From assembly GCA_030062745.1 (NCBI GenBank), contig CP099850.1, positions 7,378,001 through 7,442,000 of the forward strand: a stretch of 64,000 bases of DNA. Direction: 5' to 3'. The notes beneath the pieces were generated by a model. It had not been told where the DNA came from. It worked only from the letters and a program-made list of their open reading frames with translations, and did not search any database. The position numbers were made by a program, and so were the translations under genes. Positions 1 through 59,000 of the stretch are shown here, piece after piece (positions within the stretch are counted from its first letter, which is position 1; each line of letters opens with the position of its first letter). The DNA is from Capitulum mitella. Its lineage: Eukaryota; Arthropoda; Thecostraca; Pollicipedomorpha; Pollicipedidae.

Positions 1-1690
1 CAAAACCAGTTTTGTTTCTGGATCCAGTGCAACAGTGTAACTCTTGGCATTTGCAACTGAAGAATAATATGTAAAAGAGAAGCAGCTCACTCTCCTGAAT
101 TATACGTTATACACACATGCCTACGTAACGCATACCGACTGATGGTTTTAAAACAAACGATGTAACTGGCGTTATTTCACCTCAAGCTGCTCCGAAGAGA
201 TTGCAGGGGATTTTGGAGCTGTTTCAGAAATGGCAAATAACTTGATTATTTTCATGTAAAGCATATACTGTGATCATTTTTGCAAAATGCCGAAAGCAAG
301 TAAGTGACAACGAAGGCGGCAAATGTTTGATATCTCCAAATGTTTGATAAGAAGGCCAAGAGAGCAAAGAAGACGTTTTCTCAGTGCATAAGTTATGTCG
401 ATACGAAACGCCCATTACATGCGCATTGTTCAGTTAAGGAAGAAAAGGTGCGCGCGCTCGTTTTGTTTCAGTGCGCTTTCCTAATCAGTAAGACGCCTTG
501 TGCGCGCAAGGTGAGTAAGGTCTGGTACTGCATTTCTCTTCACATTAGGAAATGCGTTTGTTGGCGCACTGAATTTGCCTTGTTGTGCACCGCTATTCAA
601 ACGGCAATTCATATGTTCAAGGATTTTGCACCTCAAGAACTGCAAGTTTAAATGCCGCGCGAACACATGATATTATCCACTGCCATTTTTGAGCAATTCA
701 AAAACGCCGTTAGAAAAAAAAACGAGCAAGAACAAAAACACCACTCCCGAAATAATTTTGACGAGAAAGTTCACAAGTCGGCGCCGACCCTGTATGGATG
801 TAAAAGCAACCTCTTAAGGTGACCTGAGTTACCTCTTGGTGAAAACTGTCCGAATGAATACAATGCATGAATGAATGAAATTCAGCCAGACAAGTGACTT
901 GGAAATGATAAGTCTACAACAAGCGTTACGACCGGGCTAGGCTGAGCTTGGTCTATTCGGCCGCTGGAGAATGACCGAAAATTACTGAGGGTCTGAGTAG
1001 GACTTCAGACTGCAAGTCTGAAGCATTGCAACCATGGCCATTGACCTAAATACGACGCGCGAGAGATGTAAACCCTCCCATCCCCCCTCCCGCAGAATCT
1101 CCAGTCATGCCTGTACCAGTGCCATTCACCATACCAAGGACGCGGACGAAAGTAACACTTTTAATGGACATTCCTCATTATGATCCCGTTTCCATCATCT
1201 TTGCTCGTGAGGTTATGCAGGTGCTGGAAAGTACTGGAAAGAAGTTTCATTGTCACATATTTGTTTGTGAACCGAGGCAAATATGTCTCAACTGTTGTAT
1301 TGCTGGCCAATTTTTTCAACAAAAAAAAAAATTATCGTCGCACTTCCAATAATTGCCTTAACCCTCGCAAAGGTGAATACCCGAGACCCTTCGCCTTCGT
1401 AAAGGAAGGGGGGGGGGGGGTAGAAACTTGTCCTTCACAACTAACTTACTTTTGAACTCAGTATTTTTTCAGTGTTTTTGATCCGAATATTTTGCTATAG
1501 TGCTTTGGAATCAGAGTCCGTGCTAAGCAATGCTTATTGCACAAGCTCTGATCCTTACACACAGTCCCGTAATTCTAGGTCAACGGCATAATTCTGAGGC
1601 GAAAATTTAACGTGTCGACATGAACCTCAGTGTTGCGCAATAGCCATTGTCCCCCTCTATAGGTCAGCTGCCAAGTGACCTGCAGGAAAA
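1..1690. other. no gene recognised
   Basis: Only short open frames occur here and none resembles a known domain. A 13-base G run lies at 1408-1420 and an A run near 1320-1331. I see no RNA gene, long repeat or promoter-like arrangement. Confidence 0.6.
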
Positions 1691-1695
1691 ATAGT

Positions 1696-1775
1696 GAGCG
1701 TCGAGGCGACTCGAATCCACCTTGCCAAGGTGGGGAGCGGCGACAGGTGCTCCACCAACAGAGCTCCCGATACCC
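1696..1775 (-). repeat. tRNA-derived SINE head
   Basis: Read on the minus strand, 1747-1768 gives GGGAGCTCTGTTGGTGGAGC, which matches the D-arm and internal A box of a tRNA (usual form AGCTCAGTTGGTAGAGC). About 40 bases on, 1705-1721 gives GGTGGATTCGAGTCGCC, a T-arm/B-box sequence around TTCGAGT whose five-base stem needs two wobble pairs. Acceptor pairing is not evident, so this is not a functional tRNA gene. A tRNA-derived SINE promoter is the best reading; a tRNA pseudogene is the alternative. The SINE body would run toward lower coordinates (about 1560-1690), but I did not find its end. Confidence 0.6.
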
Positions 1776-2382
1776 AACAGTTGACAAAACTAACGCAGTT
1801 AATATGAAGACATCAATGGGACAGCTGCCTCTGGAAGGATGTTGCTGTAGCCTTGCTGATAACATCCCGCTGTGGCTACAGTATTCAAGATCATTTGAGT
1901 GCAATGTTCCCAGACATGCAAAGCAACTGGTTTTCCGTTTTCACTAATACGTATATGTATAAGTGCAATAAACAAACAGAAATTATAGTCTAGTAGACAA
2001 TGGTATCAAAAGACCTGTTGTTCCTCTTCCGCATATCATTTGCTTCGCATTACGTGTTGGTTTATAATTCATTGGCCATGAGGTGTTCCTCCAGTGCCAG
2101 TAAATGGTCGGCGGGAAGTGCCTGAAATTTGCTATAGCTGACCTACATTCCCTCCGCCTTTTTCATATGTGCATTGTTATTATGTTACGCCAGGCCACCA
2201 GACCGTAACTTCGTCCTCGAGAGCGTTTCCAAACAAGTTGTGACCGTGTCATGTCCGATCACCAAGTTAGGACCTCATTTTCAGGGCTTGCAACTCATTT
2301 TTTGTCAGGTCTGCCCCACATTTTAGGTTCTTCCTCAAGAGTCTGAGAAATAATGGAGTAAATTTTCGATATAGGACTGTCG

Positions 2383-2385
<3 letters not shown>

Positions 2386-2421
<36 letters not shown>
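2386..2421. repeat. (TA)n microsatellite
   Basis: An uninterrupted 36-base alternation of T and A, with ordinary sequence on both sides. Confidence 0.98.
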
Positions 2422-2427
<6 letters not shown>

Positions 2428-3399
2428 ACAATATAATGTCAGGATTTGAAAGATTAGTGACTTTTGCAATGTCACGTCAGGCCGCTAGTCTTACATGTCT
2501 TCAAAATGGCTTTGAGGCGTTTATAAGATAATTTCGGTCACTGTTTTTAGTGATGACAATGACTTTTGCCTTTTTCAATAGCCAAAACTCTAATCTGTGA
2601 TAATCAACGATCGTTTTCGGCACTCGTAGCGCAATGAAGGCTGACACTGATGCCTGACCTTTTACGGATCTGGAGAAAAACAGTCACTGAGTACAGCGAT
2701 TGACCTAGTTTGAAGGTTGCTTCAAAGGCATGGCGCGCCCGCCGAAACATTACGAAACTATTACGATGACAGTGGAGATGGCAGACAATGGGGTACTGCT
2801 ATATTTTATTGCGGTTTGAGTGAGAACTGGAATGAGAAATGTGGTACACGACTGTCTGTTTCGGCGCTCTGTCTTGATTAGGAGAAAAATGACATGGGGT
2901 GGAAAGCACCTCCCGTCATCGGGTACAGATGAAAATCCTTGGCCCTGCGAAGGCGTAAGGTTTTAAACGTGGTCCTTAAATCTATGTATCTATGTATTTA
3001 TGTATTTACAATATGTATCGATAAGTTGTGAATTTTATCTTTTGTTACGCATCTCTATGCCATTCTACCGATGAATCGATAAGAAATCGTGCTCAAGCTG
3101 TGTCCTACGCGTTTCTTTTTTGCGAGGCTGCACCTTTATCCTATGGCACCATTTGGAAATTAAGTGACGCAGCCTCTGCACTCTTTGATATATTATCGAT
3201 GTCAAAAGGTCACCTTTTGATTAGCTGGGCTGGAGTGCCTTCAAGTGGACAGCGTCCGGATTAGAAATAAAAGTGCTTGCTAAACAGAGCTTCCTGGGTG
3301 GACATTGCCCCGCTGCCCACATGTCATAAAATACGAACTAACGACTTCCATGGAGCAAACCACATGTATCCAGAGAATTTCCATCATGCCATAACTGTT
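2422..3399. other. no gene recognised
   Basis: Short open frames only, with no domain resemblance. A short run of TATGTATTTA-like units lies near 2983-3015. Confidence 0.6.
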
Positions 3400-3520
3400 C
3401 ATGGTATAGCCATCTCGTGACCGACAGACGCTGTCGGTCCCTGTTCAAATATTGGCCCACATTCTGGGTCTCGAACCCATAGCCTGCCGGACACCCATTC
3501 ATTTTTCTGTACAGCCTCGA
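3400..3520 (-). repeat. SINE-like fragment with B box and hairpin
   Basis: On the minus strand 3464-3482 contains GGGTTCGAGACCCAG. This is a perfect match to the pol III B box (GGTTCGANNCC), and it forms a T-arm-like stem (TGGG/CCCA) around TTCGAGA. Just downstream on the same strand is a perfect 9-base inverted repeat with a 3-base loop (3419-3427 and 3431-3439). No A box is evident upstream, so this is probably a 5'-truncated tRNA-derived SINE. Confidence 0.5.
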
Positions 3521-4450
3521 CATTTGCAAACATATATGTAAACAAAAAGAGCCGATGGCAATCTCTCCTTTCTTTCTTGGAAAAAACCATGACGTCATGT
3601 GTTTTATCGCATGCTCGCGTGCCACGTGTCAAGTCAAGAAGCTTCCCAAATGAAACAGTGAAGTGCCGGGGGAATCTCGTCGTGCACAACAGATGCATAT
3701 CTCCCCAGCTGGATGGCCTATAAGGAACGGTGACCGGTACCATGTTGAATTCAGAAGACACTTGAAGCTGCGAAGTGCGCTGGACGGTGGGCTGATTACC
3801 CCGAGACGTCCAGCGCGGACTGTTTAAAGTCTTGCTGGGTCGAACATCTCGCCATGCCGAGTAAGCCAACCTATCTGCTCCCCGGGAGGGCGCCGACGAG
3901 TCTTCCGGGTCTGGTCCCGTGGACTCAGGGCTGATCTCATCAGCGACCCTGCTGTCGCAGGAGCATTCACCCGCGCGTCAGACATGCATATCCTGGAGGT
4001 CCAGCCGCATTTCAATAGCTGTAGCATGACATGCCAGCTAGCCTCTCCTCGGGCCACCATTCTTATGTGTCGAGAGCAATATTCTGTTGCTGCATAATAC
4101 AAGCGCACGGCGTGCAACCGCTGATGTAGTCTGCACTGCAGACTGTACACAGACAATGACTAGATCCCATCTTGTCGAGAACCTTAGAGAGGCAGATGTC
4201 TGTAATACCTACAACTAAGCCATCCCTGGAAGCGTAGACGCCACGTCCCCCACAGACCACCCCACAGATCCGAGATGGGATGTGCACTTGCTGTTCAGCC
4301 AGTCACAGTCTTTAAAACTCGTTGCTCAGTAAACTGTACTGAATCTAGCAGTCATCGGCGGTTGTGGTCACGGCCTGCACGTGACACGTTTCCGTCCCGA
4401 TTCTGCTCCAACGCGCAGCGTCTCTAGCGCCTCCATGCGTGGGAACGCCT
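3521..4450. other. no gene recognised
   Basis: Mid-GC sequence with overlapping short open frames on the minus strand that resemble no protein I know. Confidence 0.55.
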
Positions 4451-4760
4451 AAAAGCAGCATAAAGTGTTCAAAGCCGTCGCAGTGGGCTGCTCGAGCTGC
4501 ACCCGGACGCCGCTCGGTCGACCCGCGGCAGCCCGAGCTTCAGTCAGAGTAGCTCGGACCGCTCCGCAGGGAGGCGGCCCTCCCAGGCGTCGACGAGCGG
4601 CGAGAACAGACGTCGTCACGTTGAGACAGCGATCCAGGAGAGGGGCTCGGGTCGGGTGCCGTCTTTTCCGCGGCAGGCTGCAGCTAACGTGGGACCACTC
4701 GGAACACCGGTAACGGTCGGACCTGCAGTCTAGGGGGAGTCAGCCAGGCGCGAGCAGGGG
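4450..4760. other. GC-rich, CpG-rich block
   Basis: A sharply bounded block dense in CpG. The 82-codon plus-strand frame at 4465-4713 is rich in Arg, Ala and Gly and has no recognisable domain, which is what GC-rich DNA gives by chance. The block could be a CpG island or an exon of an unknown gene; the sequence alone does not decide. Confidence 0.55.
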
Positions 4761-4910
4761 CAGTCTATGATGGCGCGTCGGTCAACACCTTGGCTCGGAC
4801 ATCAGACGAAGGTGACCATGGAGAAGAGCCGGCAGGGAGGGGAAGGGAGGACATGTAATCGGTTGGGAGAAGTTTGATGCATTTTACTATAAAACAAAGC
4901 ACTTTTTTGT

Positions 4911-6122
4911 TTAACCCTATGCCCGTAGGGTTCGACGGTATGGCCGATTCCTGTCGGGGGGAGGGGTGGATTCGGCTCCCCACCGAGATCTCGAGAACTA
5001 CCCATACGATTTCACTGCAACAACAGCAGTCGGTTTGTCTGATGTAAACTACATTTTCAGAAAAAGCAAATTTCAAAGTTTTCAAAAGGTTGGATACAGG
5101 GAGCAAAAAAAATCAAAATGGTGATATTTTTGGACTTGTTATAACTCTGTTGTTTGTAGACCGATTTTGATGAAATTGGCACGAATCAAGAGATTTGGAT
5201 GGGACTTTTACCATTGGTCCAAACATTTGAAGTTTTAAAAGATTCATAGGCGTTCACAAGGTTTCATCAGTGGGACGGTTTGTCTTTTCAACAAATGAAA
5301 TAGCAAAAAAGTTAAAAACATTTTTTTTAGATTTCTAGTCTTGTTATGCTGAAGAAGTACAAATCGTATTGCATTATTCTGATAATGTTAGCAAATGCGG
5401 TGACAGGGTCTTGAAAAAGGGGCACTGTCATTGTCACATGTTTATCAGGTCAACTTACGACTTTCACCTGAAATGACCTCCAGTGACCGTAGAGTCACAT
5501 GGAATGAATGATCTTAAGTGCGTTTCATACTGTTTAAAATGTTTCCAGACATTTAAATTTGCTCTGTTTCTGAAATTCCCTTTTACGGCTTTTGTGATGT
5601 AGGGTACGCGCACTAACATTTTAGGTCATAGCTCCGTGACCCGACTTGATATGAACCTGAAACTTAGTACACAAGTAGAAGGCACCCTTCGACGTCATAT
5701 GTACTCCTGGTTTGGCATTTGGAAAAATAACGCCAAAACTATTACTGTGAAACCAAGTTTTAAATTTTGACGACCTAAACTTGCGAAATGGCCTTAGATT
5801 AACAAAACTATATTTGCATGCTTGCCCAATTATAGACTTATACACGCACATAAGGTTTTAAGTGCTATCTTAAAAATTCTGTTTTTGTCAGCCGTTTTTC
5901 TTTTACCCTCAACAAAGCCAAAAATGACGTTAGGTGCCTCCCAAAAACGTTCTCTGGCTCCGCCCCTAAGTAACGTAGAATTACGAAATCTTGTTATACT
6001 AAGTGCAAAAGTGGGTAGGAAAAGGGACGAAGTTTCATGAGACTGCTCCAAAAACCCTGGACTTGGCAAGCAAAAAGCCAGAGGGGGCGGATTCAGCCTC
6101 CCCCTGCCAGTAATATGGTTAA
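4911..6122 (-). mobile_element. TTAA-flanked piggyBac-like element, copy A
   Basis: It begins TTAACCCTATGCCCG (4911) and ends with a decayed terminus running into TTAA (6119-6122). It is about 1.21 kb long and runs opposite to copies B, D and E: its left end matches their right ends (the GACGGTATGGCCGATTCC and GAGATCTCGAGAACTACC segments) and its right end holds the reverse complement of their left ends (CAAGCAAAAAGCC, GGCGGATTC). Inside are the shared AGGTCA/TGACCT cluster (about 5450-5500) and the segment GGTCATAGCTCCGTGACC (5623-5640). There is no transposase frame. TTAA targets and a terminus starting CCCT are hallmarks of the piggyBac superfamily; that assignment is inference. Confidence 0.85.
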
Positions 6123-7750
6123 CGAAACCATGCAAATTTGTGCGCAGCATTTTCCAAGCTAGACATTAGTTCTGGTCATGGGTGCATGCTTTCGAATGGA
6201 GGCACGACGCATCGGGCTGTTCTGTTACCACAGGTTCTCGTGAGGTGAAATGATTCTTTCTGTGGGATTGGCGCAGAGAGCAGTATGGTCACTGGTAATT
6301 ATTAACAGTCGATGTTTGAAGAGGCAAGGGAAACGTGTTGATCCAGGCTTTCTACAGGAAGCATGAGTTGAGTTCCGAAACGTTTCGGGATGTTCGGTCG
6401 CCGCAGAACATAATTTTGTGCTCCGAAGTATTGCTTGATTATCAACGATTACGCAATACAATGCGGAATTGCTGGACAAGTTCCAAGAACGAGCAGCGAG
6501 GTTAAAGGTTGTTACGATTGTTTTCATGAGAGCTCTTTCTCAAATTACCATAAACTCGGTCTGACACCACGTGGATATGATTTTCCGGCATTTTCTGACA
6601 TGATGTGCCAATGCAACCGCTCAAAACACCCCGGATGGGTAAAACGTTCAAGAATTCATCACAGGCGCATACGTCACGTCGTCATGAAACATTTGGCGCA
6701 TGTCTTTTTGCATCATCATTGCGAAGCTTACTTAAATTTCTCCCTCGTTTCCTGCGGCATAGTGAAAACGTACGAGATTTTTTTTGGAGGGGGAGGGAGG
6801 AAGGATATCAAGAGCTGGATGACATTCTGCATTTACACACACAGCTGGCACATTACAGGTAAAACCAGTCATTTTTTTAACAAGTGCAATGTATGAGTCT
6901 GGTGATCCAAGCCTGAACAACGAATGCATGGGTCCATTGCCCCAAGCGTGCACAACGACATCAGCTTAACTTGCATTCATTTGCAGGCGATTTTACGCTT
7001 GATGCATCTGATAAACCGCTTGCTGTCAGAACTCGGCGCTGGGCTGGGTACAACCGAAACCAAAATGTCCGCCGCCCGAGATGGCATGTTTTCCAAGGTT
7101 CCAGGATCACCTTAATTCTAAACCCTGCCATGTCGCTGGAGTGAAGCCAAGGTGGAAGGGGACCATGGCCTCTTTTGGTCTTGAACATTTAAGTCGGAAC
7201 CGCCTGGGGTGTCAAATAGGGTACCGCTCGATTTTTCGTCACTAATTTCTGAACCATAAGAGCCAGCCCGACCAAACTTCCAGTAGCTATTAATCAATCA
7301 GTTTTATATATTTTGACATCAAATCCATTTCCATGTGAAGTCAGGTCATGGAGATATGACGTCAAACGCGGACCCTTGCAAGCATCTTTTCGCCTCTTCG
7401 GGCGGTGGCGGAACATGCTTCGTTTTTTTTTCTCGAAAATATTCGCGATTATAATGCACGGATTATTTGGTTGTGCATAGGACATGATCCCCAAAAGGAT
7501 ATAAAGCCGTGACACGCCAGCATTAGAGGTCATGCTAGGACACATGCATGATGACAGCTGAACTGATCTGCATTGCGGGTGGCAGAAGTGGTTGCCGCTG
7601 ACCTTCCCCGTCGTTCAAGCCAGACAAGCGAAGCTATATTCGACTCTTAGCAAGGTTCACCAAAGGCGACGTGAGGTTATGTCAGTACACGTCATAGGTT
7701 GACGTCAAAACAAAATAAACTACACCATTGTCCGTGGAAGATCGTTCAGT
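6123..7750. other. no gene recognised
   Basis: No domain resemblance. A purine-rich stretch lies at about 6788-6807. Around 7230-7390 there is wording like that inside the TTAA elements (GTCAGGTCATGGAGATATGAC), which may be an old related repeat, but no termini are visible. Confidence 0.5.
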
Positions 7751-8130
7751 CGCAGCAGGGAGCAATTATTGTTCCTAGTCAGAAAATGAAGGATGACTAT
7801 CTGTTCTGACTTGGCTTGACCTTGACCCGATAATGGGCAGACAGAGCAGATTTCAGTCGTCATTTCAGTTTTGTACCTGACGCAGTTACGAATCCCAGCG
7901 AGTAATCATTGTTCTTTGTCAGGAAGAGAAATAGAACCTTATCTGACCTGACCTAGAATGACCTTGTCTGGATGGAGAGCAGATAATGCAAAAATGACTA
8001 TCAGATTTCACTTCCGTCTTTTTTTGTCATGTCGATCAAAACGGCTGCGATTAAGTATCGATCTTTGGCATGTTAATGTAAGACCAATATTTCACCTGAC
8101 CTAGGCTGACCTTGACCTCGCGGTTTTGAA
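7751..8130. repeat. diverged ~130-bp tandem duplication
   Basis: Unit 1 begins at 7751 and unit 2 at 7881, both starting CGCAG. Matching landmarks (ATTGTTC, GACCTGACC/GACTTGGCTTGACC, the AGAGCAGAT segment and a following ATTTCA) recur at a spacing of 130. A third, weaker unit may follow, since GACCTGACCTAGG recurs near 8096. TGACCT half-sites recur in each unit. Confidence 0.65.
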
Positions 8131-15030: not shown

Positions 15031-15568
15031 TTAACCCTATTCCCGGCCGGGGGGACTGAGTTCGCCCCCTCGGGTTTTTTGCTTGCCAATTCCAGGATTT
15101 TTGACGTAGCTTCACGAAACTTGGTGACTTTTCATAGCTATCCTTTCTACGTGCCATGACAAAATTTCAAGGTTCTTTTTTGCTCAGGGGCGGAGCTAGG
15201 CGACGTTTTTGGGAGGCACCTCTGGCCATTTTGGCCATGTTGAGGGTAAAAGGAAAATGTCTGCCAAAAACAGATAGAACTTAAAACTTTATATGATGAA
15301 TAGCTAAATAGTTGGGTAATGTGCAGACATGATTTTGATTGTCGGAGTCACTTTACGAGTTCAGGTCAAGGTCAAAGCCAAAGTGTTTTTTTGCAATAAT
15401 TTTTGTGCCGTTTTTTCAAATGCCAAACCAGGAATATATATAACGTAAAAAGGTGCCCTCTACTTGTGTATCAAGCTTCAGCTTGATATCCTGCCGGATG
15501 TAGGGGCGAATCCGGCCCTCCCTGCCGGGAGTTGACCATACCGTCTAGCCCTCCGGGAATAGGGTTAA
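15031..15568 (+). mobile_element. TTAA-flanked element, copy B (internally deleted)
   Basis: It starts TTAACCCTATTCCCGG (15031) and ends CCGGGAATAGGGTTAA (15553-15568), a perfect 16-base terminal inverted repeat including the TTAA target. At 538 bases it is less than half the length of copies A, C and E. The left ~450 bases match the start of copy E, then jump near 15490 to the last ~80 bases of the family. It lacks the middle, including the DR1 site. It keeps a direct repeat of AGGTCA (15363-15374). Perfect ends suggest a recent insertion relative to its neighbours. Confidence 0.92.
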
Positions 15569-33859: not shown

Positions 33860-35085
33860 TTAACCTCATTCTCGCACCCATGGCGGTAGCGTGCATTCCC
33901 GTGTGAGAAGGGGACTCGTTCGGCCGCCCTGAGCTCTCGGGAATTACCCGTCCTATTTCATCGCAACAAACGATAGCTGATTTGCCGTGACGTTACGTGG
34001 ATTCCTGTGAAGTCAAGTGTAAAAAATCTTGGAAGTGCGGTTACAAGATGGGGCAAAAGAGTCTGAAAGAGGGTATTTTTTTACTCGTCATAACGCCGCT
34101 GGACCGATTTTGCGCCGGTTTTCACGCATTTGGCATGAATCGAGAGCTAATCGACGACACTTTCCCCACAGGCCCATACGTTTGAAATTTTGAGAAAATT
34201 CGTATTCGGTCACAAGTTCTGGGAAACGGGAAAAATATGTTTTTTTTTAATCTGAATTAAGATACAAGTTCAAAATATTTTTAACTTTTACTAGTCATGC
34301 TATACTTAAGAAGCACAGATCATATCGCATTGTTGGTATGATGCTGACATAGGCGGCGCCAGAGAAATAAAAAGAGGTAACTGCCATAGTCGCATGTTCA
34401 TCAGGTCACCTGAAGCCCTTTGACCTTAACTGACCTCAAGTGACCTCAGAGTCACACGGAATACCCTTGAGTTCATTTCACATTATTTGAAAAATTTTCT
34501 CCACCCATGCAAATTGACCATATTTCTAAAAGTCAAGCTTATGGCCGTCGTGATACAGGGTATACGTGCGGATATTTTAGGTCATAGCTCCGTGGCCCTA
34601 CCTGATATAAACATAACATTCGAAGCGAAAGTAAACGGCACTGTGTTGAGGCACATATGATGCGGATTTTGCATTTTTAAAAGGAGTGTGAAAAACATTT
34701 CTTTGACCCTAAATTTGCATTTTTGGCTTAATCTTGTTACGTGGCCCCGACGAGTTATTTTGTATATTTGCGTAATTATTTACCAGTGCACGCATATAAA
34801 GTTTTAAGTTCCATATGAGAAACTTTGTTTTGCATATATTCATCTCTTTCCCTCAGCAAAGCCAAAAATGGGCTAAGGTGCCTCCCAAAAACTTGGCCGG
34901 GCTCCGGCCCTGGACAAAATAAATAAAAGTTTGGCATAATAAGTAGTACGAATGGTTGGGGAACCTGACCAAGTTTTTTCAAGCTGCTTCAAAGAACCTG
35001 AAAATAACGAGCATAAATCTGGAAAAGATGTCTGGACTGGCTGATTCTGAAGCCCCGCCTCCTTCCAGTGTGGGAATAGGGTTAA
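33860..35085 (-). mobile_element. TTAA-flanked piggyBac-like element, copy C
   Basis: It begins TTAACCTCATTCTCG (33860), a decayed form of the family terminus, and ends GGGAATAGGGTTAA (35072-35085). At 1,226 bases it is full length and lies in the same orientation as copy A. Shared landmarks are ATTTCATCGCAACAAACG (33955-33972), the TGACCTCAAGTGACCTCAG cluster near 34431-34450, GGTCATAGCTCCGTGGCC (34581-34598) and GGTGCCTCCCAAAAAC near 34877. The DR1 site is decayed. No transposase is present. Confidence 0.88.
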
Positions 35086-43381: not shown

Positions 43382-44488
43382 TTAACCCTGTTCCTGTTCA
43401 AGGAGTGGCTAGGACTCCTTAAAGCCCCTCCGGTTTTTTGCCCGCCATTTCCAGGATTTTTGAAACGACTTCAGAAAATTGCTCCTGTTCCTATCTTTTC
43501 TTCCAAGGTTTTGGAAGGCACCTCTGGCCTTTTTGTTAAACGTAAACTCTTAAACGTAAAAGGAAATTGCTTGTCACAAATTGAGTTTTCATGACAAGTT
43601 TACAAAAATATTTCTGTTAACATGAGCCTATTTTACAAGGCCAAGTCAAGGCCCGAAATCAAAATTTGGTATTATGCATGGTTTTTGGCGCTAATTTTTC
43701 AAAACAAAGAACAGAAGATATGTAATTAGAACACAGCTCTCCCCTTCTGTTTTAAGTTTTAGGTTGATATCAGGTCAGGTCATGGAACTATAACCTGAAA
43801 TGTTCGTGCGCGTTCGCTGTATCACGACGATCATAGGAAGGAAACTGAGGAACAGAAATGATTTAAATGACTGGAACCATTTAAAAACACTATGGAATCC
43901 ACCAAGGCAATTTTGTGTGTCTTCCAGGTCATTTGAGGTCATCTGAGGTCAAAGGTCAAAGGCTGATTCGATGAAATGCGACCAAGACAGTTCCCCACTT
44001 TTCATGTCCCTGGAACCGCCCATGCTAACACTATGCAAACGATGTAACGCAATTGGTACTTTTTCAGCATAAAATGATGCGCACAAGCTAAAACGGTCTT
44101 TAACTGCTATGTTAGCTCGGCTTCTAAAAAAACTTCGCCCATTTTCAAACCCTGTGAACGTCGATGATTGTTTTACTCTAAGACACATGAACCAAGGCAA
44201 AAGTCCCATCGATTAACTTTCGATTTATGCCATTTGCATCCAAATCGGTCCATAACCTTCGGAGTTATAATAGTAAAGACTACCCCCTTTTTGTTTGTTT
44301 ATTCCCCTGCCGCTCACATTTCAAAAAATTTTCTGCAGAAATGTGATTCAAGTCATAGTGAATCGATTGCCGTTTTTTGCGATGAAATCGGACGGGGAGT
44401 TCCCGAGATCTCGGGGAGGGAGTCCAATAAGCCCACCTCCCCGACACGGGAACGCGTCCATGCGTTATCGATACGGGAATAGGGCTAA
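43382..44488 (+). mobile_element. TTAA-flanked piggyBac-like element, copy D
   Basis: It begins TTAACCCTGTTCC (43382) and ends CGGGAATAGGGCTAA (44474-44488), where the right target TTAA has become CTAA. It is about 1.1 kb long and in the same orientation as copies B and E. Shared segments include CATTTCCAGGATTTTTGA near 43446, GGCACCTCTGGCC near 43517, CAGGTCATGGAACTATAACC and ATGAAATCGGACGGGGAGTT near 44380. It holds a perfect DR1 site (43946-43958). No transposase frame was seen. Confidence 0.87.
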
Positions 44489-45069
44489 GTAGATGAAAAA
44501 TATGCGACTCAGAGAAGAAACTTTGACTGTAAGGCAGCGCATTAACCTTCAGCCTCAAAGCTCTACTTCGTTGCCCGCCCTCTTGTGGCGCCCCAAACGG
44601 TCCGCTGCTCAACACGTGGCAAACTTTCAGTGGCAGATCAGGCTACCGTGCCAGCCAGTCCGGACCCGCACACCTCCACTGGACCAGTCAGCGATCGTCA
44701 CGCAGTAGTGGTACGCCACCGCACCATTCGGCTTGTGCCGAGTATCGCTATAACCAGACGATGATCCCGGCCAGCGGCCGTGGGCAGGGCGGCGAAAGCA
44801 AAGGGCCGCTAAGTAGCTTTCACTTAGCTGACTGGCGACCGTAACTCGTAAGTGGTTAAGATGTGACTTAAAAGGTTTGAGCCGACTCCTGCGGTCTGGC
44901 GGCGCATAATTGTGGGTGCTTCAAGTGGTGCTAGGTACGAGCGCGCGGTTCGCCGACATAAGAGCTGTTTTTCACGATGAGAGGTGACAACCACTTCCTT
45001 GCAGTGCTTCACACCGGGTTTTGTTTCCAATGAATCGCTGTCAGCGATATAAAGTGTGCGGGTCCGTAC
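44489..45069. other. no gene recognised
   Basis: No domain resemblance and no repeat noticed. Confidence 0.5.
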
Positions 45070-48710: not shown

Positions 48711-49219
48711 TTCGTCATGAACATTTTCAGTCAAAAGCCTTTGGCTCCAAGCGTGAAGTCAAAATACTCATTTTTGTCGCCGACTTTATCCATCAGATCG
48801 GCATGTCTTACTGCACCTGGCGATCATTGTCAAACGCCATTGTTTTTGCACAAATCCCGCGATTTTTGTTCCCGGAAATAATCGTTTGCAGGGAAGCGCA
48901 CTTGATTTTCATGGTGTAGTGGAAATCCAGACCTGAAATCAGACAACTGATCGCTGATCGCTGTATGGGCAAATTAATTCTCTGGAGGGCACAAAGACGC
49001 CTTTCACGCCACTTGGCCAGGAGGATCTCTCACCTGCTGATAATTGAGACACGTGCATTGGTGCTGAATCATGTTTTTTATGTAATGCCCGATAACGACA
49101 AATTCCGAAAATTGCCGGTAAATGTTCTGCCATCTGGAGAGTCTTTACCAAGAACGATAGGAAAAGAATTTTCACCTTGATACTTTAGATTTTCACCAAT
49201 GTGAAAGGTCATTATTATG

Positions 49220-49222
<3 letters not shown>
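48711..49222. other. no gene recognised
   Basis: Anonymous sequence between a small duplication and a microsatellite. Confidence 0.5.
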
Positions 49223-49223
<1 letters not shown>

Positions 49224-49266
<43 letters not shown>

Positions 49267-49273
49267 ATATATA
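49224..49273. repeat. (TA)n(TG)n microsatellite
   Basis: TA alternation to about 49258, a few TG units, then TATATATA again. Confidence 0.95.
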
Positions 49274-49327
49274 TGGTTGAAAGACATGTTCATACATTCA
49301 GTATTGTCACATATTTAGTTGTGAAGC

Positions 49328-51250
49328 AACGTTTCGTCCAGTCGTGGACATTGTCAAACTATTTATGTCAAATTGTAGCATTTCAAATGTAGCAAACATT
49401 TGAGTTAAATTTCAGATAAATGGCATACACTACAAGAAGACCGCAGTTCGATCCTGAAAATACGCTCCAATATAGGTCAACTAACTGAGGCCTAAACACA
49501 TCAGATGGCTGGCCTCAGGCCATGAAAAACATCACTCAGCGTGGCAGTCATGACGACTGTGGAGTGTTGGCGGTCTTTCTTGGATGAGAATAGCTGTCGA
49601 CACTCGTACACTCGTCTCCTGTCACGGTTTTGCGCGATGGTCATGATCACCGGGCCAGAGATGCGTCATGCCTTCAGTCAGCACGAACAACACCGAACTA
49701 ATGAATGCACTTCACGAAACTTCACGAACCGGCTCTACATGTAGATCGCTCGTTACCAATGACGAACATCGGCAAAAGAGCATTATCACTTTTTTAATCA
49801 CTTTTATTTAATTTTTATTATCACTTTAATTATCGCTTTTATTATCGCTATCACGTTTTTAATTTCCGCCCTGAGTTTAATTTCATACAAGTTTTTTATC
49901 AGATTTTTTTTTAACAAGCGTAACAAACATCACGATTCCTAACATTATGAACACGGAGAACACGGAGACGAACATTGTGCATGATGCAGCTACGACCAGA
50001 CATTGTCAGAACACTGTGCGCAAAAAAAACGTGCGAAACGGGCCATGGGCTACTTGCATGAAACCATCAAAAGAACATCGGAACTCTATTGTTCCCGTCC
50101 TCAGTCAAGCTTTGTTATGGACAACTAAACGGAGATTCAGTCAGGAGTTCTTGTTAGTTGCTTGGTTCATGCTGTTTTTCATGATTATATTTGAAGCCGT
50201 TTTATTCCGATAATATATTACAAGTTTCAATTTTGTGTCTCCAGTTAGCTTTATGTTTTTGGAAACCAGGTCATGAAGGATACGTCCATCAGGACGGTAA
50301 TCGGCACTCATCTGTATTTTTCATAAAACAGTTTTTTTACGCCGCACCTATCGATATTGTTTTCGTTATCGGTGTTCCTCCCAGAAGCGGCTTCGGTGTC
50401 ACTGTTGCTGGTACTGTCGCTGCCGTCGCGGCCACCGCCGCTGCTGCCGCTGCGTCCTACCACTGTTTTCTGCGGTAGGGCACAGAATGATGACGAATGA
50501 TGAAACACCAGCAACAGTGGCACCGAAACCACTTCTACAGTGGCACCGAAACCACTTCTGAGAGGGACACCGATAGTGGAAATAATGTCGACAGCGGCGG
50601 CGTAATAAACTTGTTTTATACAAAAACAGATCAGCGCCTGCCACTGTGTTATTGAAGGTATCCTTGAAGACCTGATCTTCAAAACGTTAAGTCCACCGGA
50701 AACATGAAACTAAAACTTGTCAGATACTTTAATAAAACGTTGCAAATCTCATAATCCAAAACAACATCAGCCAAGCGACGAGACCACAGTTGACCAATGT
50801 AGTTTGTGAAAATAAATGTCCTAAGGAGGCTGCAAACTTCTAACTAATGAAATCAATGGCAATGCTCATACCACTACAACCCTCTTGAGACGACTCGCTT
50901 GCAATTCAGCTTCGGGCGCACCTCACCAGCATCACCAAGACATGCATTTTTGGCGCAAATCATGGCAAGAATTGGTCCAGAATACCATGACCATCGCGCA
51001 AAACCGTGACAGGAGACGAGTGTACGGGTGTTGGCAGCTATTCTGATCCCAGAAAGACCGCCAACACTTCACAATCATCATGATAGGCCTCAGTTAGTTG
51101 ACCTATATTTGAGCGTATTTTCAGGATCGAGCTGCGGTCTTCTTGTAGCGCATGCGATTACTTTCGGATTCAGCTCAAATGCTTCTTACATTCTAAATGT
51201 TACAGTTTCACACAAACTGTTTGAACATGTACACGGTTGGACGAAACGTT
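49328..51250. repeat. large inverted repeat (foldback structure)
   Basis: The left arm (49328 to about 50415) and right arm (about 50514 to 51250) are reverse complements in several blocks in register. 49328-49340 pairs with 51238-51250 perfectly. 49430-49493 pairs with 51085-51148 with 2 differences in 64. 49563-49645 pairs with 50986-51068 with 5 differences in 83. The inner ~250 bases of each arm (about 50165-50415 against 50514-50780) match with more differences. Indels make the arms unequal: the left arm has ~50 extra bases near 49495-49550 and a longer unmatched stretch at about 49700-50120. The ~100-base spacer is GCC-rich. No protein is recognised. It could be a foldback-type transposon or an inverted duplication of an older element; a transcript would form long double-stranded RNA. 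Confidence 0.9.
50514..50559 (+). repeat. 23-bp perfect tandem duplication
   Basis: The 23-base word at 50514-50536, containing ACAGTGGCACCGAAACCAC, is repeated exactly at 50537-50559. It lies at the inner edge of the right arm of the large inverted repeat; the left arm has a single counterpart. Confidence 0.95.
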
Positions 51251-51414
51251 CCTTTAAAACTTGATGTATGACAGAGCTGGATGATATAATTTCTTACTCA
51301 TGGTTTGTAGGAAAAAGATCGGCATGAAAGCTTGAGCGCCTGGGAAAAGGCAATGCCAGGTATGTGGTCAGATTTAACGAAACACGCATCCAACCTCCCC
51401 CTCCCCATACATGT

Positions 51415-52631
51415 TTAACCCTATTCCCGGCAGGAGGGGGCGGAATCCGCCCACCCCCCTCGGGTTTTTAGCTTGCCAATTCCAGGCTTTTTAACGCAGC
51501 TTCACGAAACTTGGTCACTTTTCCTAACTATTCTTTCTCCGTGCCGTGACAAAATTTGAAAATTCTACTTTGCTTAGGGGCGGAGTCAGGCAACGTTTTT
51601 GGGAGGCACCTTATGCCATTTTTGGCCAAGTTAAGGGTAAAAGGAAAATGTCTGCCAAAAACAGAGTTTTTAAGATAGAACTTAAAACTTTATATGGATG
51701 TATAGCTAAATAGTTGGGCAATGTGCAGATAAAATTTTGTTCACCTGAGGTCATTTTAAAAGGTCAGGTCAAGGTCAAAATTCAAAATTTGTTTTTTCGC
51801 TATAATTTCGTCGTTTTTTCAAATGCCAAACCAGGAATATATATGACGTAGAAGGGTGCCTTCTACTTGTGTACCAAGTTTCAGCTTGATATCAGGTCGG
51901 GTCACGGAGCTATGGCCTAAAATGTCAGTGCGCGTACCCTATATCGCAATAGCCATAAAATGAAATTTTTCAAATAGACTGAATTCAAACGATTGAAAAC
52001 GTTTAAATATAATATTAAACGCATAGGAGACCATTCTAAGTGGCCCCAAGGTCACTGGAGGTCATTTAAGGTCAAAGGTCACAAGTTGATCTGAGAAACG
52101 TGTGACCATGACAGTTCCTCTTTTTCATGTCCCTGGCACCGCCTATGCTAACATTATACAAACATTGTAATGCGATTTGTACTTCTTTAGTATAACATGA
52201 CTAGCAGAAGCCAAAAAAGGGTGTTTGCCTCTTTTGTTCATCCAGTTGTTAGAAAACTAATCCTCCTATTTTTGAAACCCTGTGAACGCCCATGAATTTT
52301 CTCAAAATTTCAGATTTGTGTACCCATGGTAAAAGCCCTATCCATAATCTCTCGATTGATGCCAGTTTCATCAAAATCGGTCCATAAACAACGGAGTTAT
52401 AAGAAGTCCAAAAGTACCCCCCATTTTGACATTTTTTCCCCCCTGTATCCACAAATTTTAAAATTTTGACAATTTCTTTTTATAAAAATGTAGTTCACGT
52501 CACGGCAAATGGATTGCCGTTTGTTGCGATGAAATCGGACGAGTAGTTCTCGAGATCTCAGGGGGGGGGCCGAATCCGCCCCCCCCGCCGGGAATCGGCC
52601 ATACCGTCTAGCCCTCCGGGAATAGGGTTAA
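51415..52631 (+). mobile_element. TTAA-flanked piggyBac-like element, copy E (best preserved)
   Basis: It starts TTAACCCTATTCCCGG (51415-51430) and ends CCGGGAATAGGGTTAA (52616-52631), perfect 16-base inverted ends including the TTAA target. Both ends continue with a GC-rich palindromic segment (GGGGGCGGAATCCGCCC at left; the reverse complement at right reads GGCGGATTCGGCCCCC), separated at the right end by an extra ~28 bases with GGCTAGACGG. Length is 1,217. It contains DR0 (51766-51777) and DR1 (52069-52081) arrangements of AGGTCA. No transposase frame is present, so it would depend on a piggyBac-like enzyme encoded elsewhere (inference). Confidence 0.93.
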
Positions 52632-52634
52632 ATA

Positions 52635-52849
<215 letters not shown>

Positions 52850-55860: not shown

Positions 55861-56002
55861 TTAACCCTATTCCCGGAGGGCTAGACGGTATGGTCGATTC
55901 CCGGCAGGGGGGTCGGATTTGCCCCCCCCCGAGATCTCTAGAACTACTCTTCCGATTTCATCGCAACAAACGGCAATCGATTTGCCGTGACGTGAACTAC
56001 AT
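55861..56002 (-). mobile_element. TTAA element, copy F (terminal fragment)
   Basis: It starts TTAACCCTATTCCCGG (55861-55876), followed by AGGGCTAGACGGTATGG, GAGATCTCTAGAACTAC and ATTTCATCGCAACAAACGG, as in the right end of the family read in reverse. Similarity stops shortly after GTGAACTACATT (near 56002). Only the last ~140 bases of the element remain; the other end is missing. Confidence 0.9.
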
Positions 56003-59000
56003 TGAACACTCCCTCCGCCCCTTTGGAGTTATTTCGCTAATAGGATCTATGCTAAAATATTTGTGTGCAAAAAATGATTTTATTTCTTTTGACTGAAATA
56101 GAAATCGTGAAGTGTTGGATCTCTTGAAAATTAGGAGATGCAAGAAACAAATCCAAGAAAACTGCTCGTGCAAAGTTTCTTGGATTGCATGATTACAAAT
56201 ATTTACGGTACTGAACATATCGGAAAACGTCTTTGACCACGGGCCAAAATGTTCCACCAAATCACGCGCAAACAGTTTTTCGGACAAAATGCGACTGGAA
56301 TTTCCAGAAATGTTTCAGACTGCAACTGTTGCCGTGCAAGGCTCCTGGGTACACGTGCAAGCTTTGTGACCACATAGAGTGTGGTTTGGTGATAAATGGC
56401 ATCGGTGATGGGAGAAACCGCAATTAATTATTAATCAAGGTTGAAAGATAGCCATATCTATAGTCTTTCCATGAGCTTCCAAACGTTGCAACCAAGAGCC
56501 AGCGTTCCTTGAGGTTTGCTTGCTACGGCTAGACTGAATATATGGCTTCTCGAGGTTTTCGTTCCCGATATCATAATCCAAGTACGGTGGGAGGAATGGC
56601 TTTGTTTTTTCTCTTTCTGTTCTGACACACAGCTGCATTTTGTAAAAATCCCACCACACTTCGCCCCATGGGATTGTCATTCCTAAACAACGGCTAAAGG
56701 CTCATTTTAAAGCTAGGCATGACTCTCCAGGCTAACGTCCGAGGGCATTTTCGATTTTCACCACCGTAGCGTTTCCGGAGGGTCGAGGTTGCGTCCAGGC
56801 TGACTGCAGTGTTGTCATTGCTACATGTGGCCCATAAGGACGTTTTTCTACGTAATCTAGTGCACAGCAAGGCCTCTAAGTATGCGATTAGATTGGGTAG
56901 CCCGCGATTTTTTTTCTGAAAGGCGCCCAAACATGCAAGTGCTACAAGGCCATTGCCAGTGAACAACGGTGTTGTGTGATATATCAGGGGTCTCCAAAAG
57001 CTTACTGGCGTCTGAGAAGCTACCTGGGATTTTGACTGTCCTAGTCGCTTCCCGCTTTCAGGTTAAATTGTCCATTATGTGGCTTTCAAACGACGTTATC
57101 CATGTCGAATCGTTCACGTCAATTTTACATTGCAAGCCCGGCCACGTAAAAGCTGCAGGAAGTGTTGGAAAGCTCTTTTCACCATGCGGTCGAAATATGA
57201 AGAAAAGGGGTGGGTAGATAGTACGTTAGAGGCAAAGGGAAAAACGAGGCCTAGAAAAACTTGTCTTTTGTACAGCCATATCCCGGAAACCAGGACCGTC
57301 CTGTTTCCATGTGGTCCACTTCCGAAGAATTTACGTTTTATAAACCATGCATTTTTGCCTTGAAAATGACGGTTCGTCGTAACTCCTTGCCTTCTCATGA
57401 GGCATACGTCCGTGTTAACCATATCAACCCAGTATCTTTCGAACTCATTGAAATGCAAAATTACGTAGTATTTGACTCCACATGGGGTCAATTTTTCATC
57501 CCTTGGTGCAATTTTTAAGTCATAATGGCCGCTAAATCAGCCATTTTCCTACAACTGGAACCAAATTCGTTCGCATGCGTGATTCGATTACATGTACGAA
57601 TACATATAATACGGTATGGTATTAAGCAGAAAAAATATTGAACGAAGGCATATTTTCGACAAAGCAAATAACGAGGGGCGTAAATCTCGAATGGGGAAAT
57701 ACGGAATGCCAGATATCGACCTTAAAATTGATGTAGAAAAACAATTATTCCGCCGAACAGAGCATGAAATGGAAAAAGACATTGAAGGGTTTAACAGAAG
57801 TAGCGAGGAAGCATCGATGGCAACCGGCAATATGCCAAATTACAGATGACTGAATGACAGAATATCTGGTCAGGTGTCAATAACGCAACAGATAAATATT
57901 TAAGCGAAAAATATACCAAGACATCTAGTAGCGCAACACGGTGGGCGGGCGCACTGACTTCTGCCAAAAGTCGTACGGGCACATGCCAGCAGGAGCGTCG
58001 TGAAAGCTGCCCAGGGTGTACAAGTAACTCCTTTAATGTTTTAGCTAGAATCCCCCGAAATGAATATTCCGGTTGTTTCAAGGGGCTGCTGAAATGAACC
58101 GACCAAACAAACATTCTGACAGAAGCCCAAAAACCTGTTTACTTGGCAACACCAGCATTCTGGGGCGCAGCAGAAAGTCTAGAGCGACACGTGAGCGTGT
58201 CGAAAAAGCCCGCTTTCCTCCCCGCAGTCATGGCCATAGCCTTCAGCCCCTGGCTAAAGACAGGACGAAACGCTCGGCCTGCCCGACCGCCCAGCACATC
58301 CCATTGCCGTATCAGGAGCCTCGGAGGAGACAGGACCAGGAAGACTAGGACGTAATGATCTCAAGGGCTGCAAGAGGCTTAAGTGCTGCCTAAGTGACTT
58401 TCAGCAGTCTGATCAGATTTTCACCCATACGAGTTTTGCACCCGGAACCAAGTTTTCCCGAGACTGTATGGTATATTGTCGCGTCTTACGACGTCCATGC
58501 GAGGGAAATGCTTGCTTCGAGAAACTGGGCTATGAGGCAAAGAAACAGCATTCTGAAATCATCAGCAAAATTTATGTTGTATTTTTTTTACAATTTTCCA
58601 TATCAATGGATAAAACGGCGCAAAAATGTAACAGATGACGTCCGAATGGTGTCTCCCGCGTCGTTAACCTCTGGTTCACAATGCGCTGATCCTAAGACCA
58701 CGAATGGAAGCGTGTGCGCCGCTGCGTAATAGGGGTTGCTGGTAAACTGAAGCTATTGATGACGTCATTTGAAGACTTCCCTCACCCACGCTTGTTTATA
58801 CATCGTCGGTAAGATCAGGTTTTCTTAGCCTTGCGTTGTACTTGTGTCAGGGCCGCGGATAAGGGATTTCGAAGAGGGGGTGGCAGTTACAGGAAAATAG
58901 CCGTTCATAGCGTCCACTTTTGCGCATTTTGCTACATTTTCTGACAAATAAAAGTCGCCGTTACTTTTAGTCAAGATATTGATACTAAAATGAATTAATA

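What the first reader, a model, noticed from the sequence alone, without database searches (positions are those of the whole stretch)
49328..51250. ~1.9 kb foldback structure with closely matching arms
Widely spaced blocks are reverse complements (62/64 and 78/83 identical by eye), so about 0.7-1.1 kb per arm folds on itself around a ~100-base GCC-rich spacer. No known element was recognised. Similarity this high between arms implies a recent inverted duplication, gene conversion between arms or a foldback transposon. A transcript would be long double-stranded RNA, a possible small-RNA source.
Basis: partly seen in the sequence, partly recalled or inferred. Interest (0 to 1): 0.75.

Follow-up and report, generated by a model that had tools for sequence, protein, structure and literature searches.

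The report
Old back-to-back retrotransposon remnants, partly re-matched
The hairpin-like stretch is the decayed tail ends of two copies of a known type of jumping element (a Penelope-like retrotransposon) lying back to back, with one short patch kept nearly identical probably by copying between the two halves; it is an ordinary relic, not a new kind of element.

Summary
The foldback is real (about 49299-51384) but neither recent nor unknown. Both arms are remnants of the C-terminal linker and GIY-YIG endonuclease of a Penelope-like element (PLE), head to head, 3' ends outward. PLE endonuclease profile matches: 6e-15 (left arm), 2e-10 and 2.5e-4 (right arm). A related open frame of 809 aa in the same genome has RVT_1 (4e-13) and GIY-YIG (2e-6). 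Head-to-head is the usual layout here: of 25 neighbouring endonuclease matches within 12 kb, 20 are '-+', none '+-' (150 of 737 candidates scored). Fetched pairs range from 99.9% to about 70% arm identity. This copy's inner arms are 71.7% identical, no closer than to copies elsewhere (70-74%), so the pair is old. One tract (49435-49644 with 50987-51143) is 93% identical against 72% just outside (0 of 10,000 permutations) and shares a 2-nt insertion that five other copies lack, which fits gene conversion between arms. The left arm also carries 508 nt of another repeat. Head-to-head PLEs are published (PMC3846280).

The parts
49221..49275 (.). TA-rich microsatellite just outside the left arm (strict (TA)n run 49224-49257)
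   Evidence: read directly; (TA)n arrays lie within 80 nt of both outer ends in 8 of 15 other PLE loci, at one end in 2, at neither in 5
49299..49646 (-). left outer arm: PLE endonuclease C-terminus and 3' untranslated/terminal-repeat part, 3' end outward
   Evidence: 72% inverted match to 50986-51273; pieces match L009, L010, L011, L019 at 66-80%
49435..49644 (-). left side of the high-identity (gene conversion) tract
   Evidence: 151/162 identical to the right arm (columns 49432-49646) against 99/137 just outside; segment test 0 of 10000
49495..49547 (-). 53 nt present in the left arm and missing from the right; the other copies aligned have sequence there
   Evidence: alignments
49647..50154 (.). 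internal piece of an unrelated ~1.1 kb dispersed repeat ('F2'), standing where the left arm lacks the counterpart of 50783-50985
   Evidence: matches 8 loci on 6 contigs, 65-79% in pieces of 90 nt or more, ending exactly at 50154 in 7 of 8 (L018 stops at 50063); in those 7 the repeat continues beyond the window's match
50155..50412 (-). left inner arm: PLE linker upstream of the endonuclease
   Evidence: EN profile E 6e-15 on 50144-50320 minus
50413..50506 (.). centre / head-to-head junction, GCC-rich
   Evidence: folding of 50440-50500 has z-score only -1.72
50507..50782 (+). right inner arm: PLE linker
   Evidence: 67% inverted match to the left inner arm, 71.7% in a trimmed alignment; EN profile E 2.5e-4 on 50736-50840 plus
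50783..50985 (+). right arm, endonuclease core coding remnant, absent from the left arm
   Evidence: EN profile E 2e-10 on 50825-51043; tblastn of the 809-aa relative, residues 730-781 on 50870-51025
50986..51384 (+). right outer arm: endonuclease C-terminus, 3' UTR/terminal repeat; homology to L010, L011, L019 ends at 51382-51384
50987..51143 (+). right side of the high-identity tract

Best explanation
This is an old head-to-head pair of 5'-truncated Penelope-like element (PLE) copies. Shown: both arms carry linker/endonuclease coding remnants read outward, the same layout is common for PLEs in this genome, and the arms have diverged to family background except in one tract. Inferred: the pair arose when PLE protein cut an AT-rich site and reverse transcription gave two cDNAs with 3' ends outward (extension on both strands, or self-priming of one cDNA), whose 5'-truncated ends were joined. 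Inferred: long afterwards one arm was repaired using the other as template (the ~160-nt tract), and repair then joined or switched to a piece of an unrelated repeat (508 nt), whose junction lies exactly where the tract ends. No function is likely; it is a decayed relic that could at most give patches of double-stranded RNA if transcribed. The confidence below is for identity, layout and age; origin in one insertion event alone I put at about 0.7.
For: EN profile built from PLE proteins hits the left arm (50144-50320 minus, 6e-15) and the right arm (50825-51043 plus, 2e-10; 50736-50840 plus, 2.5e-4); the next match elsewhere in the window is E 0.57, and the RT profile has nothing better than E 2. 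An open 809-aa frame on C1 has RVT_1 at 4.3e-13 and GIY-YIG at 2.2e-6, above the curated cut-off, when its last 172 residues are scanned; tblastn places its residues 646-694 and 730-781 on the left and right arm. Orientation of neighbouring EN matches: 20 '-+', 4 '--', 1 '++', 0 '+-' within 12 kb (150 of 737 candidates scored; the C12 pairs at 17.11 and 17.20 Mb may be one pair duplicated). Inverted arms in 14 fetched loci run from 99.9% (L051) to 69-75% (L019, L009, L010). Of the four other loci of this subfamily, L009, L010 and L019 are head-to-head and L011 is a single arm. Tract. Published parallels: head-to-head PLE pairs (PMC3846280, passages); cleavage and extension of both target strands and AT-rich preference (PMC11167929, passages).
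Against: Pfam found nothing near a curated cut-off in six pieces (two from the window's right arm, four from relatives; no left-arm piece was scanned); a PDB search and a protein database search with the L011 piece found nothing useful. With Pfam at E 0.01 the whole 809-aa frame showed RVT_1 only. No RT part in this copy, no clear target-site duplication in 11 fetched loci, no hammerhead ribozyme. The terminal-repeat signature (N-terminal codons again) is weakly seen in L009 and L011 (E 2.4e-5, 3.8e-4), not in this copy. The left outer end (49299) is shorter than the right (51384). The arms are not each other's closest relatives in the core, so one insertion event is not proven. The direction of conversion is unknown, and the 53-nt difference inside the tract needs a separate deletion.
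Confidence: 0.9

Rival explanations
1. Two independent PLE insertions landed next to each other in opposite orientation, one in or near the other, and look like a pair (same element type, different origin of the layout).
For: Inner arms are 71.7% identical, no closer than to other copies (70-74%); just outside the tract the left arm is slightly nearer to C8 and C2b (76%) than to the right arm (72%).
Against: Homology between the arms reaches about the same point at the centre, and the head-to-head layout recurs: 20 of 25 neighbouring pairs, 0 of 25 tail-to-tail; young pairs have nearly identical arms.
Confidence: 0.25
2. Recent inverted duplication of one locus, the two blocks being its best-preserved part.
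For: Blocks of 78/83 and 61/64 identity and a shared 2-nt insertion.
Against: Identity drops from 93% to 72% at a sharp point (Fisher p 1.3e-6; segment test 0 of 10000); the 20 other pairs of the seven aligned sequences are 65-79% identical in the tract, so it is not specially conserved.
Confidence: 0.03
3. A foldback-type DNA transposon (Foldback/Galileo-like).
For: Long inverted arms around a short centre.
Against: Arms carry PLE endonuclease remnants; one relative is a single arm (L011) and outer ends are unequal. No dedicated transposase search was made.
Confidence: 0.02
4. Assembly artefact (false inverted join).
For: None found; reads were not available.
Against: Outside the tract the arms differ at about 28% of aligned positions and have different insertions and flanks; a false join would give near-identical arms.
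Confidence: 0.02

Closest known systems
Head-to-head inverted Penelope elements of Adineta vaga (PMC3846280, passages seen)
   Same: PLE copies joined head to head with 3' ends outward, 5' truncation, terminal repeats holding the first codons of the ORF (the last seen in relatives of this copy)
   Different: Different host; this copy is far more decayed, lacks RT, carries a foreign repeat piece and a high-identity tract
Canonical RT plus GIY-YIG Penelope/Poseidon elements (e.g. Poseidon of Anolis, PMC11167929, passages seen)
   Same: A relative in this genome encodes RT and GIY-YIG in one frame; AT-rich surroundings; the published enzyme extends both target strands
   Different: No hammerhead ribozyme reached the Rfam gathering score in the window or in 16 loci
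Foldback / Galileo DNA transposons (recalled, not from a call)
   Same: Long inverted arms
   Different: Arms are retroelement coding remnants with unequal outer ends; one relative is a single arm

Membership tests
Penelope-like elements (PLE) | GIY-YIG endonuclease domain of PLE type at the C-terminus | tested here: met
   PLE EN profile 6e-15 and 2e-10 on the two arms (the left-arm match covers profile positions 17-72, the linker part; the right-arm one 95-151); the related 809-aa frame has GIY-YIG 2.2e-6. Pfam on two right-arm pieces: nothing near cut-off
Penelope-like elements (PLE) | Reverse transcriptase upstream in the same ORF | tested here: not met
   Absent from this truncated copy (RT profile, nothing better than E 2); met in relatives L051 and L052 (RVT_1 4e-13, 2e-12). 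The locus is therefore called a remnant of a PLE, not an element
Penelope-like elements (PLE) | Pseudo-LTR that repeats the start of the ORF downstream of the stop | tested here: inconclusive
   Met in young relatives (residues 1 to about 50 again after the stop in L051, L053, L055, L056), weak in subfamily copies L009 and L011; not detected in this copy
Penelope-like elements (PLE) | Head-to-head or tandem arrangement with 5' truncation | tested here: met
Penelope-like elements (PLE) | Hammerhead ribozyme motif (in some PLEs) | tested here: not met
   none at gathering score in the window or 16 loci; none up to E 5 in 49200-51450
Penelope-like elements (PLE) | Target-site duplication | tested here: inconclusive
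   candidates in 11 fetched loci were TA runs or no longer than in random pairs; the window copy itself was not scored
Foldback DNA transposons | Inverted termini that define the element ends, with target-site duplication | tested here: not met
   outer ends are unequal (left homology stops at 49299, right goes on to 51384) and one relative, L011, is a single arm; duplication not scored for this copy
Foldback DNA transposons | Transposase in some family members | not tested
   no dedicated transposase search was made; the coding remnants found are PLE endonuclease

The most novel reading that the evidence does not exclude
In this genome Penelope-like elements insert mainly as head-to-head dimers next to (TA)n arrays, because the enzyme primes on both strands of one AT-rich break. 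The dimers then persist as foldbacks whose arms keep exchanging sequence by patchy gene conversion, of which this locus would be a very old example.
Probability: 0.3. Interest if true: 0.4.

Novelty: new member of a known kind. Interest (0 to 1): 0.18.

Why it matters
It shows that a striking foldback can be ordinary retroelement debris. For PLE specialists the genome is a useful test bed: a graded series of head-to-head pairs from 99.9% to about 70% arm identity, a one-sided orientation bias (20 '-+', 0 '+-') and a link to (TA)n arrays bear on how PLE inverted pairs form (self-priming or priming on both strands).

Tried and rejected
Pfam on six translated pieces, a PDB sequence search and a protein database search with the L011 piece gave nothing useful; the identification came from the same-genome protein search, open relatives, and profiles built from the 120 PLE proteins returned (those under 900 aa plus L051 were aligned; 80, 92 and 93 rows for the N-terminal, EN and RT profiles). 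Rfam on the window: none at gathering score; the sub-threshold MIR834 match at the centre (27 bits, cut-off 200) was rejected as a hairpin coincidence. tRNA search: none. Target-site duplications: inconclusive. Centre hairpin: z -1.72, 15 of 200 shuffles as good, so no palindrome-at-junction claim is made. Constraint as the cause of the identical blocks was rejected because the 20 other pairs of the seven aligned sequences are 65-79% identical in the same columns. A first count of (TA)n arrays past the EN match ignored strand and was replaced. In the segment test 5 of 7 aligned sequences were used; C2a_R and C2a_L were dropped because they end before the outer part. One search was a script that failed on a file name. 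PMC10294476 was looked into (one passage) and not used.

Full report
Observation. The window is part of a 477-Mb, 16-contig genome with no name given; I take it for an animal's (inference). The foldback at 49.3-51.4 kb is real. Gapped self-comparison pairs 49305-49645 with 50986-51273 (72%) and 50157-50470 with 50470-50779 (67%). The best inverted score of the stretch is 217 bits, against at most 35.6 in 100 dinucleotide shuffles; of 23 other window stretches tested one scored 206 and the rest at most 44.6. I did not look into the 206; self-complementary (TA)n arrays near 52.7 kb are a possible cause. The arms are interrupted: 49647-50154 and 49495-49547 have no partner on the right, and 50783-50985 none on the left.

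Copies. A DNA search of the own genome found 33 matching places; apart from the locus itself they are 65-80% alike, with one 36-nt match at 92%. After fetching them, two repeat families separate. The first is the arm family, on C2 (two loci, L009 and L010), C8 (L011) and C10 (L019). L009, L010 and L019 carry it as inverted pairs with the same ends outward; L011 is a single arm. The second, called F2 here, matches only 49647-50154. It has copies on C1, C2, C5, C7, C12 and C14 (eight loci). In seven of the eight the match reaches exactly 50154 and the repeat goes on beyond it (L018 stops at 50063), and in L012, L015 and L017 it also extends on the other side, so the window holds an internal piece.

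Identity of the arms. Read outward, frames of the relatives looked to me like the C-terminal endonuclease of Penelope-like elements (recalled). Pfam on six pieces, two of them from the window's right arm, found nothing near a cut-off. A six-frame search of the genome with one piece of L011 gave 150 scored matches out of 737 candidates. Some lie in long open frames. One, of 809 aa on C1, has RVT_1 at 4.3e-13 and, when its last 172 residues are scanned, GIY-YIG at 2.2e-6, above the Pfam cut-off; 1424 of 7988 scored database proteins match it. A profile from its relatives hits the window at 50144-50320 minus (6e-15), 50825-51043 plus (2e-10) and 50736-50840 plus (2.5e-4). The left-arm match covers the linker part of the profile; the left outer arm itself reaches only E 4.2 there, and is placed by its DNA match to the right arm and to the other copies. 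The next window match has E 0.57, and the RT profile finds nothing better than E 2. Both arms are therefore linker and endonuclease remnants of a PLE, without RT.

Layout. Of 25 neighbouring EN matches within 12 kb, 20 are '-+' (head to head), 4 '--', 1 '++' and 0 '+-'. Two of the '-+' pairs (C12 at 17.11 and 17.20 Mb) may be copies of one duplication. The best inverted matches in the fetched loci form a series: 99.9% (L051), 99.8% (L061), 98.9% (L056), 98.2% (L055), 97.1% (L054), 96.0% (L053), 84-87% (L057, L058), 90% and 77% (two blocks of L062), 80-83% (L063, L064), and for the subfamily of the window 74% (L009), 75% over 92 nt (L010) and 69% over 183 nt (L019, which also has short pieces at 82 and 88%). 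Downstream of the stop several young copies repeat the first 50 or so codons, the pseudo-LTR of PLEs; weak traces are seen in L009 and L011 but not in the window. By tblastn the two copies of a pair start at different residues in L053 (365 and 569), L055 (359 and 559) and L057 (689 and 273) and at the same one, 488, in L056; this does not decide between self-priming and priming on both strands.

Surroundings. (TA)n arrays of at least six units lie within 80 nt of both outer ends in L051, L053-L058 and L061 (8 of 15 loci), at one end in L009 and L062, at neither in L010, L011, L019, L063 and L064. The window copy has one at its left end. Background is 1.4% of window positions and 0.7% of 33,008 bases of eight other loci. 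Arrays are self-complementary and so can themselves lengthen the inverted match. Of the 30 loci fetched with the EN match (some lie in the same pairs), 15 have an array 150-600 nt past it, against 2 and 3 in two control stretches. I cannot say whether the arrays are target or part of the element. A published PLE enzyme prefers AT-rich DNA and extends both strands (PMC11167929, passages seen).

Age and the high-identity tract. The inner arms are 180/251 identical (71.7%); against the three other copies aligned, the left one is 70.0-73.6% and the right one 70.6-72.0% identical: the arms are no closer to each other than to copies elsewhere. In one tract, 49435-49644 with 50987-51143, the arms are 151/162 identical (columns 49432-49646), against 99/137 just outward (Fisher p 1.3e-6). 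A GENECONV-like segment test gives 0 of 10,000 permutations for this pair; the other nine pairs of the five sequences used give 792 to 7834 of 10,000. The 20 other pairs of the seven aligned sequences are 65-79% identical in the tract, so constraint does not explain it. Both arms share a 2-nt insertion that five of five other aligned sequences lack. I read this as gene conversion between arms. The tract ends at the junction with the F2 piece (49646/49647), which suggests one repair event that copied the other arm and then took up foreign filler; this last step is inference. The 53 nt missing from the right arm must have been lost after conversion, or the left arm kept them through it.

Mechanism and rivals. 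Most likely: an ancient head-to-head PLE insertion, then decay, then an arm-to-arm repair event. The main rival is two separate PLE insertions in opposite orientation (about 25%); it changes the origin of the layout, not the identity of the arms. A recent duplication, a foldback DNA transposon and an assembly artefact are each at or below 3%. Double-stranded RNA from a transcript is possible only in patches (longest perfect stretch 41 nt); no RNA data were available.

Known or new. PMC3846280 (passages seen) reports inverted-repeat PLEs, most often head to head, and proposes self-priming. PMC8969392 (passages seen) describes 5' truncation and pseudo-LTRs. A search for papers with Penelope, head-to-head, retrotransposon, inverted and reverse transcriptase returned two papers; in the listings of two searches on PLEs and microsatellites (five papers) I saw no title on (TA)n-flanked head-to-head pairs, but the library lacks most subscription papers. 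The locus is a new, decayed member of a known kind; the genome-wide pattern is of modest interest.

Noticed in passing
window 51415-52632: A ~1.2 kb dispersed repeat just beyond the right arm; inverted relatives lie in the window at 4910-6122 (78%) and 33924-35003 (67%), and 15031-15490 matches part of the first of these.
   Followed up: no
window 52487-52631 and 55861-56003: A second inverted pair of about 145 nt at 93% identity, 3.2 kb apart; 55861-56003 also matches 15503-15568 and 44340-44489.
   Followed up: no
window 49647-50154; L012, L015, L016, L017, L020: An unnamed ~1.1 kb dispersed repeat (F2) with copies on at least six contigs; its kind was not worked out.
   Followed up: partly
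L061 (G000:C7:11304000-11313999): Three EN matches in tandem at 2652-bp spacing followed by a head-to-head copy, and a tRNA match at 269-341 minus.
   Followed up: no
G000 C12:17114262-17116140 and 17203344-17205227: Two head-to-head PLE pairs with nearly the same spacing 89 kb apart, perhaps one pair copied by a segmental duplication.
   Followed up: no
window 52687-52744 and 52785-52848: Two long (TA)n arrays close together.
   Followed up: no
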